IMG/VR virus record: IMGVR_UViG_3300046543_000277
Span: 1 to 26,598 of that record
Strand: one strand, 5' to 3'
DNA: 26,598 nucleotides
Source: a virus
Part shown: positions 1,006-25,879 of the stretch, one piece after another
Layout: the number at the start of each line of letters is the position of its first letter
How positions within the stretch are numbered: position 1 is the first letter of the stretch
The notes under the pieces: generated by a model
What the model was told of the DNA's origin: nothing
What the model saw: the letters and a program-made list of their open reading frames with translations, nothing else
Database searches by the model: none
Program-made: the position numbers and the translations under genes

Positions 1006-2801
1006 CGAACGTAACCGGTATCGCAGCGCAAGCGCAAAAGAAGCGCCGCCAGGCCCAAGGGCAGCGCGCGGCTACGGTCAACCTTCCTGCGCCGATCGGC
1101 GGCTGGAATGCGCGCGATTCGCTCGCGCAGATGCCGCCAGAAGATGCGGTCACGCTCACGAACTGGTTCCCGACGACATCCGATGTGATGGCGCGGCAGG
1201 GCTATACGAAGTGGGCGACTGGCCTTCCGGGTCAGGTCAACACGATCATGCCGTACAACTCGTCGACCGGCTCTAACAAGCTGTTCGCGGCCTCTGGCGC
1301 GGGTATCTACGATGTGAGCGGCGGCGGTGTTGTGGGCGCGCCTGTCCTGTCAGGCATGACTAGCGACAAATGGGCGTATACGAACTTTGCGACGCTCGCC
1401 GGCCCATTCCTCGGAATTGTGAACGGGCAAGACGGATATTACGTCTACAACGGCAGCACATGGCAATCGATCGTAAGCGGCACAGGTCAGACAATCACCT
1501 CGATTACGAACGCCACCACGACTGCCACGCTCACGACCGCGGCGCCGCATGGTCTGACGACTGGCAATACGGTATCGGTCAGCGGAGCAACGCCGGCAGC
1601 CTATAACGGAACGTTTGTAATCACGGTAACGGGTGCGAACACCTTTACCTATGTGATGGCGTCGAATCCTGGCGGAAATGCCACGGTGGTAGGCGCATAT
1701 ACGCTGTCGACCAATATCTCAGGCGTCAACCCGAACACTTTCTCGTTTATCACCCTCTTTGCAAGCCGCCTCTGGTTCATCCAGAAGAACAGCCTGAAAG
1801 CGTGGTATCTGCCTGTCGGTCAGTTCGGTGGCGTCGCTCAGTTCCTCGACCTCAGTCCGATATGCCGGCGCGGCGGATTCCTCGTGTCGATGGGCGTCCT
1901 GACGATGGACGGCGGCTACGGCGTACAGGATCAACTCTGCTTCGTGACTAGTGAAGGCGAAGTCGTCATCTATCAGGGAACCGACCCGTCGCAATCGTCC
2001 ACCTTTGCGCTAGTCGGTGTCTACCAGCTCGGCACGCCGATGGGCTTCCGCTCGTTCATGAAGTATGGCGGCGATCTGCTGTACATCGGCAAAGACGGCC
2101 TCGGCCCGATTTCGCAAATGCTGGCGTCGACTCGCGTTAATACGGCCGTCAACATCACCGGAAAGATTCAGGGCGCCATTTCTACGGCGACGAGTCTCTA
2201 TCCGAATAACTACGGCTGGTGTCTGGTGCTGTTTCCGCTTCAGAACATGATTATTCTGAACATCCCGGCCGGCGTCGACGTTCAGCAGCAGTACGTCATG
2301 AACACCATTACCGGCGCGTGGTGCAACTTCACCGGATGGGGCGCGAATCACTGGGAGCGCTTCAACGATCAGATTTACTTCGGCGCAAATGGTTATGTCG
2401 GACTCGCATGGAATGGCTTCAGCGACAACGGCGTTAACATCAATGCGCTGGCCCAGCAGGCGTTCAACGAGTTCGGCACGCCGCTACAGAAGCGCTTCAC
2501 GATGATGCGGCCGATTCTTTGGACGAACGGCGCGCCGGCGCTGGCGGCAGGCATCAACGTCGACTATGACCAGAATGTCCCGCAATCGACGCTGAACTAT
2601 CTGCCGCTCAGCTTCGGCGTATGGGATACGGCCATTTGGGATTCGGGCATGTGGGGCGGTGCGCTACAGATCGCGAAGGCATGGCAGGGCGTAACCGGCG
2701 TCGGGATGACCGGCTCGCCTACTCTGAAAGCCGCGGTAAATGGCACGGAGACGCACTGGGCCGCCTCTGACATCGTATTTGAGACGGGCTGGACGGTATG
2801 A
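1002..2801 (+). CDS. Tail hub / packaged-DNA stabilisation protein (gp10-like)
   Basis: This 599-residue protein begins with GTG inside the stop of the adaptor gene (GTGA). A basic leader (KKRRQAQGQR) is followed by the motif LPAPIGGWNARDSLAQMPPEDA (about 28-49) and by repeated W- and G-rich beta stretches expected of a propeller-like tail hub. Residues about 167-233 (APHGLTTGNTVSVSGAT ... NPGGNATVVG) form a separate small beta module that recurs in phage tail proteins. Position directly after the adaptor and before the ejection proteins supports a role in closing the portal and holding DNA, like P22 gp10. The assignment rests on context and general style rather than a diagnostic catalytic motif. 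Confidence 0.6.
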   Translation: MTNVTGIAAQAQKKRRQAQGQRAATVNLPAPIGGWNARDSLAQMPPEDAVTLTNWFPTTSDVMARQGYTKWATGLPGQVNTIMPYNSSTGSNKLFAASGAGIYDVSGGGVVGAPVLSGMTSDKWAYTNFATLAGPFLGIVNGQDGYYVYNGSTWQSIVSGTGQTITSITNATTTATLTTAAPHGLTTGNTVSVSGATPAAYNGTFVITVTGANTFTYVMASNPGGNATVVGAYTLSTNISGVNPNTFSFITLFASRLWFIQKNSLKAWYLPVGQFGGVAQFLDLSPICRRGGFLVSMGVLTMDGGYGVQDQLCFVTSEGEVVIYQGTDPSQSSTFALVGVYQLGTPMGFRSFMKYGGDLLYIGKDGLGPISQMLASTRVNTAVNITGKIQGAISTATSLYPNNYGWCLVLFPLQNMIILNIPAGVDVQQQYVMNTITGAWCNFTGWGANHWERFNDQIYFGANGYVGLAWNGFSDNGVNINALAQQAFNEFGTPLQKRFTMMRPILWTNGAPALAAGINVDYDQNVPQSTLNYLPLSFGVWDTAIWDSGMWGGALQIAKAWQGVTGVGMTGSPTLKAAVNGTETHWAASDIVFETGWTV

Positions 2802-3247
2802 AGCGGATTGTTTGGGATCAGCCGGAGCGCGTTATGCGCTTCGTTGCTGACCGCGTGGGCGAACGTGAATTCGAAGGCTATACAGCGATCGGGCTCGAGC
2901 GCGACGGCGAATTGATCGCGGGCGTTCTCTATGAGCAGCACACCGGCCCGAACGTAATGATGCACGTCGCCTCGGACGGCTCGCGCCACTGGATGACGCC
3001 GGCTTACATGGCTGCGTGCTTCCGCTACCCATTCCTTCAGCTTGACGTCAAACGCGTTACCGCGTTGGTGCGCTCTGACAACCTCGCGTCCATCAACTTT
3101 TGTTCCGCGCTCGGATTCAAGACGGAAGGCGCATTGAGAGAAGCCGCGACAGACGGCGCTGATCTGATCCTGTACGGGATGCTCAAACGGGAATGCAGGT
3201 ATCTAGACGGTAAATATTTCGACGCGCTGCATAAGGACAGAAAATGA
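2798..3247 (+). CDS. GNAT-family N-acetyltransferase
   Basis: This 149-residue protein starts with ATGA overlapping the previous stop. It shows the GNAT pattern: central strands (about 33-47, GELIAGVLYEQHTG), then RVTALVRSDNLASINFCSALGFKTEGALREA (about 85-115), the segment that in this family cradles acetyl-CoA and carries the N-x-A-S-x-x-F/L signature before the GF turn. Acetyltransferases of this shape are common between tail genes of podoviruses. The substrate is unknown; a virion protein or a host protein are both possible. A short basic tail (DALHKDRK) follows. The fold is fairly secure, the role is not. Confidence 0.75.
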   Translation: MKRIVWDQPERVMRFVADRVGEREFEGYTAIGLERDGELIAGVLYEQHTGPNVMMHVASDGSRHWMTPAYMAACFRYPFLQLDVKRVTALVRSDNLASINFCSALGFKTEGALREAATDGADLILYGMLKRECRYLDGKYFDALHKDRK

Positions 3248-12789: not shown

Positions 12790-13875
12790 CTACCCTGCAT
12801 TTATGCGTACTTTTATCGGTGCAATGCCGCGCGAATTCGCATAAAGATCGGCTATCGCATCGGTCATATGGCCGAGCAAAGCCTTTGTATCGATCCCTCC
12901 CTGCTCCATGTAGATGCGCTTCGAAAGACTGCGAATTTCGTGGAATGTCGGCGCTCCGTCTTCGGGTATGCCGGCCAATCTGCGCGCCTCAGCGAAGCCC
13001 GCGGAGATCGTATTCAGATGCACCGGCTGCCCGCGCAGCATCACGCCGCGGCTGCGCACATGGTGGATCAAGTACTTCGAAACGACGCCTGTTGACTTGC
13101 ACCTAGCGATGATCTCGCCCAGTGACATTCCAACCGCATCCATGCGTAGCTCGAGTGGAATAGAAATCCGGATCTTCGTTTTTGAGCGCTGCAACTCGGC
13201 GTGTCCGTCGACGACGAACGAGCGCTCCCACGTTCCGATCGTCGACCGGTCCTGACCTGAGACTAGAGCCAGCAGCATCGCATTCGGCAGCCAGGACGCG
13301 ACCTCGGGCGCCTTCCCTAGGATCAGGTTGAACTGTTCCAGCGTCAGACGCTTGCGCTTCACGCTATTGCGTACCTTCTCAGTGACGATCGCCGGGTTCT
13401 TTTCCATCCATCCGAGCGCCAGACCCTTGTTGAAAATCGCGATCATGCGTGTTCGGATGACCTGAGCCCAGCGCAGTTTCCCACGCTCCTTTATCGGCTC
13501 AAGCACGTCTGCAATATCGCGCGTCGTCAGCGTCGCACATTCGCGCGTTCCGAGCGCTGCGCTAATCACCTTATCGCAGTCGCCGCGGGCGCGGATTGTG
13601 TTGGTGCTCAGCCCTTCAGTCGGCATCTTCGCAATCAGATCAGAAACGGTTCCTTGCTCCCGCGATACGCGTTCTGCAAGGCTCCGGCTGAGCTTCCCGT
13701 TCTCAACTATCACGTTCGCCTCGTGCGCCTCGTGGATCGCCTGCGCGAGCGGGATACGCCCTAGAACGTGTGTCTTCCCGTCTCGAGGGTCGCGCCAGAC
13801 ATAATATTCCGGGCGCGGCTCGTGCATGTTCGCCGGCCAATTGGCGCGGCGTCTTATCCGTGGGCGTGCTGCCAT
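12790..13875 (-). CDS. int: Tyrosine-recombinase integrase, lambda Int type
   Basis: This 361-residue protein corresponds to lambda Int (356 residues) along its length. The N-terminal arm-binding domain has the RPRIRRRANWPANM ... YYVWRDPRDGKTHVLGR pattern. The core-binding domain follows, then the catalytic domain with Arg210 (SGQDRSTIG), Lys232 (SKTK), His312 and Arg315 (FHEIRSLS), His336 (LLGHMTDA) and the nucleophile Tyr345. All catalytic positions are intact. Xis lies 3 bases upstream and ends the leftward operon together with int. It would integrate the phage at attP, presumably in the gap just downstream. Confidence 0.95.
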   Translation of the reverse strand: MAARPRIRRRANWPANMHEPRPEYYVWRDPRDGKTHVLGRIPLAQAIHEAHEANVIVENGKLSRSLAERVSREQGTVSDLIAKMPTEGLSTNTIRARGDCDKVISAALGTRECATLTTRDIADVLEPIKERGKLRWAQVIRTRMIAIFNKGLALGWMEKNPAIVTEKVRNSVKRKRLTLEQFNLILGKAPEVASWLPNAMLLALVSGQDRSTIGTWERSFVVDGHAELQRSKTKIRISIPLELRMDAVGMSLGEIIARCKSTGVVSKYLIHHVRSRGVMLRGQPVHLNTISAGFAEARRLAGIPEDGAPTFHEIRSLSKRIYMEQGGIDTKALLGHMTDAIADLYANSRGIAPIKVRINAG

Positions 13876-19856: not shown

Positions 19857-20264
19857 TTATGTCCCAGTGATCCGATGCGGCTTCTCGGCCGGCAGGTCGA
19901 TTGCGGCGTGCGACCGCTCGGCCATCGATATGACACTGGCGATCGTTTCAATGTCGCGATCTTCCAACACTCCGCGCCGTGCCAGGCGATAGAGACGCTC
20001 GATCAGCTCGCCTACGGCTCCTTCCGCAGCGCCTTGCAGTGGGTTTAAATCGGGACTGAACAGGGCTGGAATCGTGACACCGATTCCGCCCGCCAGCGCG
20101 TCGAGCTTGTCGATCTTCGGTTCCACTTCTTGGGTACGAATCCGGTGGATGGTCCGCTGTCCGAGCTTCGTCGCTTCTCCCAGGTCTCCATCGTTGGCAA
20201 ATCTCCGCCCCGGCCCGACGAGGCTATCAATGTTCGCGCTCAGAATTTTCAGTGCTTTAGACAT
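19857..20264 (-). CDS. CI-like phage repressor, HTH only
   Basis: This 135-residue protein carries an N-terminal helix-turn-helix of XRE/CI type at about 27-66 (LGEATKLGQRTIHRIRTQEVEPKIDKLDALAGGIGV). The C-terminal part is short and helical (GELIERLYRLARRGVLEDRDIETIASVISMAERS) and lacks the Ser-Lys S24/LexA protease region. ATG 20264 is preferred: a -10-like TATGAT sits exactly 7 bases upstream, so the mRNA would be leaderless as for lambda cI, and no Shine-Dalgarno is seen at either candidate. ATG 20294 would add ten residues. It diverges from the Cro-like gene across the right operators. It should maintain lysogeny by binding OL and OR. Confidence 0.85.
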   Translation of the reverse strand: MSKALKILSANIDSLVGPGRRFANDGDLGEATKLGQRTIHRIRTQEVEPKIDKLDALAGGIGVTIPALFSPDLNPLQGAAEGAVGELIERLYRLARRGVLEDRDIETIASVISMAERSHAAIDLPAEKPHRITGT

Positions 20265-20276
20265 GCACTGATCATA
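20264..20276 (-). promoter_or_regulatory. pRM-like -10 box and leaderless start of the repressor
   Basis: TATGAT at 20271-20276 (minus strand; five of six consensus bases) places the transcription start at about 20264, the A of the repressor ATG. No recognisable -35 is present 16-18 bases upstream. The expected -35 region abuts the operator at 20289-20302, fitting activation by bound repressor as in lambda. Confidence 0.5.
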
Positions 20277-20288
20277 ATTTTTATCGCT

Positions 20289-20330
20289 AGTCATTTGTGT
20301 CTTGCGTTGTTAGACATCTGCGTCTACAAT
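20289..20330 (+). promoter_or_regulatory. Right early promoter pR with paired operators OR
   Basis: TTGCGT (20302-20307) and TACAAT (20325-20330) are 17 bases apart, with a start near 20337, so the following ATG at 20340 would be nearly leaderless. Operators lie at 20289-20302 (AGTCA-TTTG-TGTCT) and 20312-20325 (AGACA-TCTG-CGTCT), with centres 23 bases apart. Each shares one base with the -35 or -10 box exactly as in the left block. Even the deviation AGTCA in the promoter-distal site is the same in both blocks. Confidence 0.8.
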
Positions 20331-21108: not shown

Positions 21109-21900
21109 ATGGCAGGTGATTGGATTAAGATGCGCGGCAACCTCTGGGATGACCCCAGAGTTGCCCGCTTGTGCGACCTGACCGACAACGGCGAAGCAGC
21201 CGTGATTGGCGGTCTGTACTGGCTGTGGGCTACCGCAGACCAGCATTCCTCTGATGGCGTCATGCCTGGCCTGACGCTGCGCTCTATCGACCGCAAGACC
21301 GGCATTCCCGGCCTCGGTGACGCTCTCGTATCGATCGGCTGGCTTATCAATGAGCCGGAAGGCGTGCGCATTGTCCGCTTCGAAGAACACAACGGAACGT
21401 CCGCTAAGAAGCGTTGCGTTACGGCTAAACGCGTTGCTAACCATCGCAGTAACGATGATGTAACGCAGGAAGCGTTACAGGACGAACACGAGAGCGTTAC
21501 ACCTGCGTTAGCTAGAGAAGAGAAGAGAAGAGAAGAGAAGAAAGAACCTAAGTCAAAAGCAGAAGCATCCGCGTCGCGTCTGCCTGCCGACTGGATGCCG
21601 ACTGAGGGTGAAATCTCTTTTTGCCAAACCGAAAGGCCTGACCTAAACCCCGTCTCGGTTGCAAGCCAGTTTCGAGATTACTGGATCGCGCAGCCTGGGG
21701 CTAAAGGCCGAAAGCTGGACTGGCCGGCAACGTGGCGAAACTGGGTGAGGAACCAGCGAGGCACAGGCGGACCGCGACAGATCCACAGCTACCACGACGA
21801 ACGAGCCGAAACAATCGCAGCACTGACGGGGAGAAATCGATATGAGCACGAATCCGAAGCAACCGACCAACGCCAACTTCGAATCGCCGTGGCCGGTTAA
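21109..21900 (+). CDS. Replication initiation (O-like) protein
   Basis: This 263-residue protein starts at ATG 21109 with AGGGG upstream. The N-terminal domain (about 1-100: WIKMRGNLWDDPRVARLCDLTDNGEAAVIGGLYWLWATADQ ... GVRIVRFEEHNG) is the winged-helix replication domain common in proteobacterial phages. A charged linker (about 130-155) is encoded by a pentanucleotide repeat. The C-terminal domain (LPADWMPTEGEISFCQ ... DYWIAQPGAKGRKLDWPATWRNWVRNQR) is the DnaT-like DNA-binding segment. Followed by a P-like gene, it should bind the origin, possibly within its own gene, and recruit the loader. Confidence 0.8.
   Translation: MAGDWIKMRGNLWDDPRVARLCDLTDNGEAAVIGGLYWLWATADQHSSDGVMPGLTLRSIDRKTGIPGLGDALVSIGWLINEPEGVRIVRFEEHNGTSAKKRCVTAKRVANHRSNDDVTQEALQDEHESVTPALAREEKRREEKKEPKSKAEASASRLPADWMPTEGEISFCQTERPDLNPVSVASQFRDYWIAQPGAKGRKLDWPATWRNWVRNQRGTGGPRQIHSYHDERAETIAALTGRNRYEHESEATDQRQLRIAVAG
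21514..21541 (+). repeat. AGAGA pentanucleotide tandem repeat inside the replication gene
   Basis: Five complete AGAGA units plus three bases run without interruption and encode part of the linker (REEKRREEK). Because the unit is not a multiple of three, gain or loss of a copy would shift the frame before the C-terminal DNA-binding domain. Confidence 0.8.
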
Positions 21901-22369
21901 TGCGATTCCGCAACGCTGGGTGGAAACGCTGTTCGCCAAGATGAGCGCGTTCTACGGATCACGGTTCGCGGATATGTGGCGCGGCTCGAATGTTTTGGAA
22001 GTTCAGAAGGCATGGGCGATCGAGCTTAAAAAGCTGTCGTCTGCGCAACTGAAGGCCGGTGTCGACGCGCTGACGGCGTTCACGAAGCCGCCCACGCTGC
22101 CGGAGTTCCTCGAGCACTGCAAGCGCACGCGGCTGGAAATGGCGGCACACGAAGCCCCGCGGCTCGAGCACACGGCGCCCGCAGACCAAAAGGTGATCGA
22201 TTCGAACCTGAAGAAGATTCAGCGGATCGTCCACGGCGTTCAGTTGAAATCGGCGCACAAGGGATGGGCTACCGAAATGATCGAGCGCGGCACGGGCCGT
22301 AACGGCGCTCCGCTGACGGTGGAAGTGTTGCAGAGCTGCCGCGACGTGATCGAAGGGAAGAAATTTTGA
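21842..22369 (+). CDS. Helicase loader, lambda P-like
   Basis: This 175-residue protein overlaps the end of the O-like gene by 59 bases and has GGGGAG upstream of ATG 21842. It shows the P-type core: IPQRWVETLFAKMSAFYGSRFADMWRGSNVLEVQKAWAIELKKLSSAQLKAGVDALTAFTKPPTLPEFLEHCK, the K-P-PTLPEF block being characteristic of phage replication P family members. The C-terminal part is helical (IQRIVHGVQ, WATEMIERG). It would deliver the host replicative helicase to the origin complex. Confidence 0.8.
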   Translation: MSTNPKQPTNANFESPWPVNAIPQRWVETLFAKMSAFYGSRFADMWRGSNVLEVQKAWAIELKKLSSAQLKAGVDALTAFTKPPTLPEFLEHCKRTRLEMAAHEAPRLEHTAPADQKVIDSNLKKIQRIVHGVQLKSAHKGWATEMIERGTGRNGAPLTVEVLQSCRDVIEGKKF

Positions 22370-23723: not shown

Positions 23724-24073
23724 TGTCCAAGAAAAACGTCTATCTGTCGGATCAGATACTAAACAGCCTGATCGAAAAGCCGCAGACAACCGCCGAACTC
23801 GCTCAGCGCTTCGAAACTCATCATGAAAATGTACGCAAGCGGCTGGCGCGTCTGAAGAGCGAAGGGCTGGTGCATATCGCGGAATACCGCATCAGCGAAC
23901 TGCGCTCCAATCAGCCGACCAAGGTATTCGGCGCCGGCTCAGGACAGGACGCGGAGCGCATCACGAAATGCGAGCTCGAAATGATCGAGCGCAAGACCGC
24001 CAAGAAGGCCGAATTCGTTCCGCGGCGCGATCCGTTCATCGCCGCTTTCTTCGGAGCCGCACATCATGGCTAA
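23720..24073 (+). CDS. Winged-helix regulator with the same C-terminal tail motif
   Basis: This 117-residue protein is ATGA-coupled to the previous gene. It is a winged helix (QILNSLIEKPQTTAELAQRFETHHENVRKRLARLKSEGLVHIAEYRI, about 12-58) and ends in DPFIAAFFGAAHHG. It looks like a shorter relative of the preceding winged-helix protein without the Myb-like part. A DNA-binding role is well supported, its target not. Confidence 0.65.
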   Translation: MMSKKNVYLSDQILNSLIEKPQTTAELAQRFETHHENVRKRLARLKSEGLVHIAEYRISELRSNQPTKVFGAGSGQDAERITKCELEMIERKTAKKAEFVPRRDPFIAAFFGAAHHG

Positions 24074-24170
24074 AAAGCTAGGCAGCATGATCCCGGAAAA
24101 CTTCGATGCACTCTGGTTCGCTCTCGGTATCAAGCGCAAGGACTGGACAAAACCGCAGGAGACAAAATGA
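24066..24170 (+). CDS. 34-residue small protein, unknown
   Basis: ATG 24066 lies 8 bases inside the end of the preceding gene with GGAG upstream, and its stop overlaps the next ATG (ATGA). The product (AKKLGSMIPENFDALWFALGIKRKDWTKPQETK after Met) is basic and partly amphipathic. Tight coupling on both sides supports its reality. The role is unknown. Confidence 0.55.
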   Translation: MAKKLGSMIPENFDALWFALGIKRKDWTKPQETK

Positions 24171-24664
24171 GCATCGCATATCGGGCAATGATGTTCGCGC
24201 GCGAAGCGCACAAGACGCAAGTTCGCAAATACACCGGGAACCCCTACGCTGATCACCTGGCCGAAGTCGCCGGCATCGTGGCAACTGTCGCGCTCGACAC
24301 AGAGCATTCCGTCGCGGTCGCGTGGTTGCACGACACGGTTGAGGATACGGCAACAACGGGAGCCGACCTTTTGTTGGAGTTCGGTTCGATCGTGACAAAA
24401 GGCGTGATTCTTTTGTCCGATCTTGAAACCGGCAACCGGACCGAGCGCAAGGCAGCGGGGCGCGCACGGCTCGCCGCGGCGCCGGCATGGATTCAGACGA
24501 TCAAGTGCGCCGACTTGATCAGCAACACATCGAGCATCGTCAAGCACGATCCGAAATTCGCGGTGACGTACCTCGAAGAGAAGCGCCTTCTGCTAGATGT
24601 GATGACGAAGGCTGATCCGCGTCTGCTGGCGCTCGCTATGGAGCAATCAAAGGAGCGTTCATGA
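24167..24664 (+). CDS. HD-domain (p)ppGpp-hydrolase-like protein (MESH1/SpoT type)
   Basis: This 165-residue protein matches the RelA/SpoT hydrolase HD domain: AREAHKTQVRKYTGNPYADHL (Arg20, His30), VAWLHDTVEDT (His55, Asp56, Glu59, Asp60), EFGSIVTKGVILLSD and IKCADLISNT (Asp116, Asn120). All metal-binding residues expected for the small alarmone hydrolase fold are in place. No synthetase domain is present and the length fits the single-domain hydrolases. It could lower host (p)ppGpp during infection. Other HD phosphohydrolase substrates remain possible. ATGA-coupled on both sides in the early operon. Confidence 0.8.
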   Translation: MSIAYRAMMFAREAHKTQVRKYTGNPYADHLAEVAGIVATVALDTEHSVAVAWLHDTVEDTATTGADLLLEFGSIVTKGVILLSDLETGNRTERKAAGRARLAAAPAWIQTIKCADLISNTSSIVKHDPKFAVTYLEEKRLLLDVMTKADPRLLALAMEQSKERS

Positions 24665-24927
24665 GCCGCGAACAATTCGACACCTACTACTCGACCGTCC
24701 ACGGCTGCCTGCTCGCCTCGGTCAAAGAGAACCACTGGCGCACCTGGCTAGCAGCCCAAGAAGCGCTCCTGTCGGCTCACGGTCCTGCGGTAGAGCTTCG
24801 GGTAATACAAGACGCAGAGAAGACGCTGGACGACCAATGGAAGCGTCTGAACGCGCTGCAAAGGATGGCCGAGAACGAACAGGAACTCGGACTGGACTAC
24901 ACGGAAGCACGGGAGATAAAGGAATGA
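24661..24927 (+). CDS. Helical early protein, unknown function
   Basis: This 88-residue protein follows by ATGA overlap. It is helical with several Trp, His and Gln residues (YSTVHGCLLASVKENHWRTWLAAQEALL, KTLDDQWKRLNALQRMAENEQELG). Coiled-coil pairing is plausible. It sits between the HD protein and the small membrane protein, with no recognisable motif. Confidence 0.55.
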   Translation: MSREQFDTYYSTVHGCLLASVKENHWRTWLAAQEALLSAHGPAVELRVIQDAEKTLDDQWKRLNALQRMAENEQELGLDYTEAREIKE

Positions 24928-25305: not shown

Positions 25306-25496
25306 GCGACGTGGGGGATTTCGACTGTCATCAATGCGAGCACGAGCACATCCGGTCTGGCGGGAATTGCTTCCTGAGAGTCAGGATGATTCTATGCCCG
25401 ATCTGCGGAAACAAGCGCTGCCCGAAGGCGAACGACCATCGAAACGAATGCACCGGAAGCAATGAACCGGGCCAGAAAGGGAGCGCATACGAATGA
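25302..25496 (+). CDS. Small Cys-rich zinc-ribbon-like protein
   Basis: This 64-residue protein carries CHQCEHEH (Cys9, Cys12), an isolated Cys at GGNC, then CPICGNKRCPKAN (Cys32, Cys35, Cys40) and a further Cys, enough for one or two zinc sites. It is followed by a flexible Gly/Asn/Ser tail. Small zinc-ribbon proteins of this type are common next to nin-region recombination genes. A nucleic-acid or protein-binding role is a guess. Confidence 0.6.
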   Translation: MSDVGDFDCHQCEHEHIRSGGNCFLRVRMILCPICGNKRCPKANDHRNECTGSNEPGQKGSAYE

Positions 25497-25879
25497 GCGA
25501 TCGCCAGTTATTCCGCCTCGTGCATCCGACCGCGCGGCAGATGGCGTCGCGAGCCTGCATCCAGGCTCCTGACGGCTACGTGGTGGAGATCAAGCCCCGA
25601 ACGCGCAGCCTAGACCAGAACGCGCGCATGTGGGCGATGCTGAACGACATAGCCGGTCAAGTCGAATGGCACGGCCAGAAGCTGGCGGCCGAAGACTGGA
25701 AGCACGTCTTCAGCGCCTCGCTCAAGCAGCAGCGCGCAGTTCCGGGGCTGGATGGCGGATTCGTGGTGCTCGGCCAGTCGACAAGCAAGATGACCATTCG
25801 GGAAATGTCGGACCTGATGGAGATCGCCACGGCATTCGGTGCAGAGCGTGGGGTGAGATTTTACGGGGGTGGGGAATGA
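25493..25879 (+). CDS. ninB: NinB / lambda Orf recombination mediator
   Basis: This 128-residue protein has the NinB signature KPRTRSLDQNARMWAMLNDIAGQVEWHGQKLAAEDWKHVFSASLKQQ (about 35-80) and GGFVVLGQSTSKMTIREMSDLMEIATAFGAERGV. The family acts at single-strand DNA and helps load recombinase in place of RecFOR. The length is slightly under lambda Orf (146). It forms a nin-type block with the nucleases downstream (ATGA overlap). Confidence 0.9.
   Translation: MSDRQLFRLVHPTARQMASRACIQAPDGYVVEIKPRTRSLDQNARMWAMLNDIAGQVEWHGQKLAAEDWKHVFSASLKQQRAVPGLDGGFVVLGQSTSKMTIREMSDLMEIATAFGAERGVRFYGGGE

What the first reader, a model, noticed from the sequence alone, without database searches (positions are those of the whole stretch)
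24167..24664. Phage-encoded small alarmone hydrolase-like protein
The full HD metal site of the SpoT/MESH1 hydrolase is present (His30, His55-Asp56, Asp116) with the RKYTGNPY and VEDT motifs, and the protein is a single domain in the early operon. Removing (p)ppGpp could block the stringent response or counter alarmone-based defence such as toxic small alarmone synthetases.
Basis: partly seen in the sequence, partly recalled or inferred. Interest (0 to 1): 0.6.

Follow-up and report, generated by a model that had tools for sequence, protein, structure and literature searches.

The report
Phage alarmone hydrolase, known paSpo-type family
A temperate phage, probably of Burkholderia-like soil bacteria, carries an intact single-domain enzyme of the MESH1/SpoT hydrolase family that most likely strips pyrophosphate from bacterial alarm nucleotides and from toxin-modified tRNA; this is a new member of a phage protein family already known and already shown to neutralise such toxins.

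Summary
Window 24167-24664 (+) encodes a 165-aa single-domain protein with H30, H55-D56 and D116, plus R20, E59, D60 and N120, all aligned with the hydrolase residues of RelSeq. The predicted structure (pLDDT 95.8) matches human MESH1 over 165 residues (Z 23.9, rmsd 1.9 A). The gene lies in a tight early operon of a temperate phage, between replication genes and NinB.

The family is known: 242 phage records hold a relative. The tree puts the window with PaSpo of Salmonella phage SSU5 (41% identical), which published work shows neutralises toxSAS toxins and removes their tRNA-CCA pyrophosphate. No alarmone synthetase occurs in the window or 33 related records, so it is an orphan hydrolase, not an antitoxin.

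One unexpected detail: in a sister phage with nearly identical flanking DNA, the ~160-bp block carrying the HD/ED motifs has been exchanged (57% identity against 98-99% on either side).

Verdict: new member of a known kind.

The parts
24167..24664 (+). single-domain small alarmone hydrolase, paSpo-type (165 aa); catalytic R20, H30, H55, D56, E59, D60, D116, N120
24281..24440 (+). exchanged central block of the hydrolase gene (about aa 39-91, carries HD and ED motifs): 69 of 160 bases differ from sister phage L010, against 6/557 to the left and 14/700 to the right
24066..24170 (+). 34-aa ORF immediately upstream, overlapping the hydrolase start by ATGA (probable translational coupling)
   Evidence: 100% identical in L010
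23720..24073 (+). winged-helix/HTH protein of the same operon
24661..24927 (+). 88-aa ORF of unknown function, overlaps the hydrolase stop by ATGA
21109..21900 (+). replication initiation protein, upstream in the same operon
   Evidence: phrog_2509, 4.2e-47
21842..22369 (+). P-like helicase loader, weak match
   Evidence: phrog_109, 2e-6
25493..25879 (+). NinB recombination mediator, downstream in the same operon
19857..20294 (-). phage repressor, start of the divergent early region
   Evidence: phrog_4583
12790..13875 (-). integrase (temperate lifestyle)
   Evidence: phrog_7244, 2.2e-41

Best explanation
A catalytically intact small alarmone hydrolase of the paSpo/MESH1 kind, made early in infection. 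With a Mn2+-bound HD site it removes the 3'-pyrophosphate from purine alarmones ((p)ppGpp, (p)ppApp) and, as PaSpo-SSU5 does, from tRNA 3'-CCA ends pyrophosphorylated by toxSAS/CapRel-type defence toxins, so keeping translation and nucleotide pools running for the phage. Shown here: gene, fold, complete active site, conservation, early-operon position, absence of a partner synthetase. Inferred: metal, substrates, counter-defence purpose.
For: Active-site residues match RelSeq R44, H53, H77, D78, E81, D82, D144, N148 through the alignment, and are invariant or at least 90% conserved in 60 relatives and 0.98-1.00 in 62 close ones. AlphaFold model pLDDT 95.8; MESH1 Z 23.9, P. aeruginosa SAH Z 23.2, SpoT 18.9, Rel 18.3. 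The tree places it in a phage-dominated SAH clade with PaSpo-SSU5, support 97/88, apart from long RSHs, 100/100; 41% identical to PaSpo, E 1e-25. PaSpo-SSU5 removes FaRel2's tRNA modification and neutralises toxSAS (PMC11559606, PMC9712102, PMC7644958). No PF04607 synthetase in the window or 33 related phage records. Host side: 97 of 97 genomes of the P. monticola genus carry synthetases and 9 show three or more synthetase matches.
Against: No activity was measured. Identity to the tested PaSpo is only 41%, and SAHs differ in substrates: the M. [quoted passage not shown] campestris SAH also takes NADPH (PMC9765508). Extra (non-RelA/SpoT) synthetases are uncommon in the likely host group, 9 of 97 genomes at most, which weakens a purely toxSAS-directed role. 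That those extra synthetases are toxins was not tested.
Confidence: 0.62

Rival explanations
1. The main role is to hold down host (p)ppGpp and blunt the stringent response during infection or lysogeny, with toxSAS neutralisation incidental.
For: All 97 genomes searched in the P. monticola genus carry long-type synthetases, mostly two (RelA plus SpoT), so (p)ppGpp is always present while extra synthetases are rare. Fold and site match ppGpp hydrolases.
Against: Host SpoT already hydrolyses (p)ppGpp. No infection data. The best-studied relative was characterised against toxSAS.
Confidence: 0.25
2. It is the enzymatic antitoxin or immunity protein of a phage-encoded synthetase toxin (toxSAS pair, or a MuF-Apk2 toxin with its Aph1 hydrolase).
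For: Such pairs exist: FaRel/ATfaRel (PMC11782079) and prophage MuF-Apk2/Aph1 (PMC12226406).
Against: No RelA_SpoT synthetase domain in the window, in 27 related virus records, or in SSU5 and five other annotated phages, while the control rang in 11 of 14 genomes. Neighbours are HTH, small unknowns and NinB.
Confidence: 0.04
3. It acts mainly on a cofactor (NADPH, CoA or PAPS phosphatase), tuning host redox or sulfur metabolism.
For: MESH1 and X. campestris SAH dephosphorylate NADPH (PMC9765508), MESH1 also CoA (PMC13221220 abstract); nearest structures include MESH1-NADPH and MESH1-PAPS complexes.
Against: XccSAH is about 10^3 times less efficient on NADPH than on alarmones. The fold cannot separate these substrates.
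Confidence: 0.06
4. A generic HD-domain nucleotidase or phosphodiesterase (YfbR-, OxsA- or dNTPase-like), not an alarmone enzyme.
For: Same HD superfamily; such folds appear lower in the list (Z 7.6-8).
Against: MESH1/SAH/Rel structures stand well above them (mostly Z 14-24), and the RK..G.PY..H, HDxxED and K.AD..N motifs of the RSH hydrolase family are complete.
Confidence: 0.03

Closest known systems
PaSpo, small alarmone hydrolase of Salmonella phage SSU5 (paSpo subgroup named in Atkinson 2011, PMC3153485)
   Same: Phage-encoded single HD domain, all catalytic residues, shared ADL..NTSSIV..DP.F...YL.EK motif, same clade in the tree, no partner synthetase in the phage
   Different: 41% identical; PaSpo is 213 aa with a C-terminal extension; host group differs; PaSpo activity is demonstrated, this one's is not
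PHROG 990 phage metal-dependent phosphohydrolases (e.g. Rhizobium phage RHph_X66, Sashavirus E. coli phages, Acidovorax phage ACP17)
   Same: Family match 3.5e-36; 242 phage records hold a relative
   Different: At most 50% identity among the listed isolates that cover most of the query; the closest kin (77-84%) are uncultivated IMG/VR contigs and Burkholderiales prophages
Prophage SAHs of Paraburkholderia monticola, Caballeronia glathei, Solimicrobium silvestre
   Same: 77%, 71% and 67% identical
   Different: Different phage contexts; only the hydrolase, one small ORF and (weakly) the integrase are shared with the P. monticola locus
Human/Drosophila MESH1 and P. aeruginosa SAH
   Same: Full-length fold, Z 22-24, rmsd about 1.9 A; same catalytic set
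   Different: 24-28% identity; cellular enzymes

Membership tests
Small alarmone hydrolase (SAH; RSH-type hydrolase domain alone) | RSH-type HD hydrolase domain with no synthetase, TGS or ACT domain | tested here: met
   165 aa, HD_4 only; TIGR00691 matches only profile positions 1-100
Small alarmone hydrolase (SAH; RSH-type hydrolase domain alone) | Complete metal and catalytic residue set of RSH hydrolases | tested here: met
   R20, H30, H55, D56, E59, D60, D116, N120 align with RelSeq and are conserved in 60 members
Small alarmone hydrolase (SAH; RSH-type hydrolase domain alone) | MESH1/SAH fold | tested here: met
   model pLDDT 95.8; MESH1 Z 23.9 over 165 residues
Small alarmone hydrolase (SAH; RSH-type hydrolase domain alone) | Mn-dependent hydrolysis of a 3'-pyrophosphate from (p)ppGpp or (p)ppApp | not testable with these tools
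   needs purified protein
paSpo-type phage SAH | Clusters with PaSpo-SSU5 apart from long RSHs and Mesh1-like cellular SAHs | tested here: met
   clade of 72 rows, 97/88; long RSHs separate at 100/100. Deep forks inside the clade are unresolved, and the 2011 subgroup model itself was not available
paSpo-type phage SAH | Removes tRNA-CCA pyrophosphate and neutralises toxSAS | not testable with these tools
   shown for PaSpo-SSU5 only (PMC11559606)
SAH antitoxin of a toxSAS pair, or Aph1 immunity of a MuF-Apk2 toxin | Adjacent synthetase toxin gene | tested here: not met
   no PF04607 in the window or 33 related records; the window record is partial

The most novel reading that the evidence does not exclude
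The active-site core of this hydrolase (about aa 39-91, with the HD and ED motifs) behaves as an exchangeable cassette between otherwise near-identical soil phages, so that substrate range is being diversified by recombination in an arms race with different nucleotide- or tRNA-modifying defence toxins.
Probability: 0.12. Interest if true: 0.6.

Novelty: new member of a known kind. Interest (0 to 1): 0.3.

Why it matters
It adds a Burkholderiales-phage branch to a known class of phage enzymes that can undo alarmone and tRNA-pyrophosphate toxins. If the anti-defence role holds, these orphan hydrolases would explain how some phages survive toxSAS/CapRel immunity. The natural set of alleles with near-identical ends and exchanged active-site cores would let substrate specificity be mapped directly.

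Tried and rejected
Antitoxin or MuF-immunity reading: rejected for want of any synthetase in the window or 33 kin records, with the caveat that the record is partial. Anti-phage defence gene: no PADLOC match. Generic HD nucleotidase: ranks far below MESH1/SAH. Near-identical named phage: none by megablast. Conserved gene neighbourhood: only L010 shares the flanks; other kin share at most scattered genes such as NinB or Gam, so no conserved partner gene was found. Diversity-generating retroelement as cause of the variable block: base changes are not biased to A, 16 of 69 start from A, so recombination is preferred. Promoter and terminator scan gave no more than shuffles. A direct look at Jimmy et al. 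2020 and Ahmad et al. 2023 was not possible (not held).

Full report
What is there. The ORF at 24167-24664 (+) encodes 165 aa. Matches: Pfam HD_4 5.8e-11, PHROG 990 'metal-dependent phosphohydrolase' 3.5e-36, the hydrolase end of TIGR00691 spoT_relA 3.6e-15, and solved Rel, SAH and MESH1 chains. In the alignment with RelSeq (1vj7), query R20, H30, H55, D56, E59, D60, D116 and N120 fall on R44, H53, H77, D78, E81, D82, D144 and N148, the hydrolase-site residues of RelSeq (their role is from established knowledge of that structure).

Surroundings. The window is a virus record of 26,598 bases with virion, amidase, lysozyme and spanin genes, an integrase, a Gam-like protein and a repressor on the minus strand, and a packed + strand run: replication initiator, P-like loader, HTH proteins, the hydrolase, small ORFs, NinB, and a Ref-like/HNH nuclease ORF. 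Most neighbours overlap by 4 bases; a 34-aa ORF at 24066-24170 overlaps the hydrolase start and the next ORF overlaps its stop. This is the early operon of a temperate phage, inferred from gene order; the promoter scan was uninformative. Host: the closest hydrolases in named genomes are in Paraburkholderia monticola (77%), Caballeronia glathei (71%) and Solimicrobium silvestre (67%), the same sequences appearing as IMG/VR viral contigs, so prophages; 6 of 398 genomes of the P. monticola family hold a close relative, and the phage's amidase-like protein has a 64-69% match in another genome of that family. The host is therefore probably a Burkholderiales bacterium (inference).

Family. 242 of 50,697 phage records hold a relative, and 66 IMG/VR loci were fetched. 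The tree of 132 sequences puts the window in a 72-row, mostly viral clade (97/88) that includes PaSpo-SSU5, Sashavirus-type and Rhizobium phage proteins, apart from long RSHs (100/100) (bootstrap not fully settled, inner forks open; some bacterial rows, e.g. Pantoea, also fall in this clade). Eleven positions are invariant in 60 sequences, among them R20, H30, H55, D56, E59, D116 and N120. The AlphaFold model (pLDDT 95.8, pTM 0.91) matches MESH1 (Z 23.9, 165 residues, 1.9 A), P. aeruginosa SAH (23.2) and SpoT (18.9); other HD enzymes fall to Z 8-12.5.

What it does. PaSpo of phage SSU5, 41% identical, neutralises toxSAS toxicity and removes the tRNA modification installed by FaRel2 (PMC11559606), was used to make CapRel-SJ46 expressible (PMC9712102), and rescued E. 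coli from the ppApp-making FaRel, as did the PVP-SE1 phage SAH and human MESH1 (Jimmy et al. 2020 as reported in PMC7644958). By analogy the window enzyme most likely removes 3'-pyrophosphate from purine alarmones and toxin-modified tRNA. SAH substrate range varies (PMC9765508), so the ranking of substrates is a guess. No synthetase domain occurs in the window or 33 related phage records, so it is an orphan enzyme directed at host molecules, not a TA antitoxin or MuF immunity protein. In the P. monticola genus all 97 genomes carry synthetases, and 9 show three or more matches (at least one of these may be a split gene), so ppGpp is a universal target and extra synthetases are occasional ones. 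A recent paper reaches the same cautious reading for an SAH of Pseudomonas phage Adele (PMC12846349).

An unexpected detail. The sister contig L010 shares the flanking genes at 89-100% protein identity but its hydrolase at only 83%. At DNA level, bases 24281-24440 differ at 69 of 160 sites, against 6/557 just left and 14/700 just right (Fisher p 1.6e-37 against the rest of the aligned 3.4 kb). The block carries the HD and ED motifs. All six pairs among window, L003, L010 and L027 show it: ends 0.86-0.99 identical, middle 0.51-0.70. Synonymous sites follow suit (window/L010 pS 0.04, 0.80, 0.10), so it is exchange of DNA, not merely relaxed or positive selection on the protein. Other close groups do not show it (L002/L006/L011/L017/L021 have 0.99-1.00 identical middles), and milder mosaicism is also seen in NinB, so ordinary phage recombination suffices. 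Whether it changes substrate range is untested.

Verdict. Real, intact, well-conserved, correctly recognised; a new member of a known kind, with an anti-toxSAS function already demonstrated for a relative. Interest is modest.

Noticed in passing
window 24281-24440 against L010 4211-4708: Central block of the hydrolase gene exchanged between sister phages with nearly identical flanks; same pattern among window, L003, L010 and L027.
   Followed up: partly
L071-L076 (except L073), L083, L084 (bacterial contigs): Proteins of about 440-458 aa in Desulfobulbaceae and gammaproteobacterial MAGs carry a phage-type SAH domain at the N-terminus fused to a roughly 250-aa C-terminal part of unknown identity (lengths).
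   Followed up: no
L050 4968-6839 (IMG/VR 3300033562_000771): A 623-aa viral protein begins with a phage-type SAH domain; the rest was not identified.
   Followed up: no
L070 7992-8516 / L029 (Solimicrobium prophage): The otherwise conserved ED motif reads EG (D60 replaced by G) in this copy, a possible natural activity change.
   Followed up: no
L151 (Acidovorax phage ACP17): The SAH gene is directly followed by a gene annotated as a phosphohydrolase of the MutT/nudix type, a possible second nucleotide-cleaving partner.
   Followed up: no
window 2798-3247: GNAT-type acetyltransferase gene (phrog_4470, host takeover category) set within the virion gene block.
   Followed up: no
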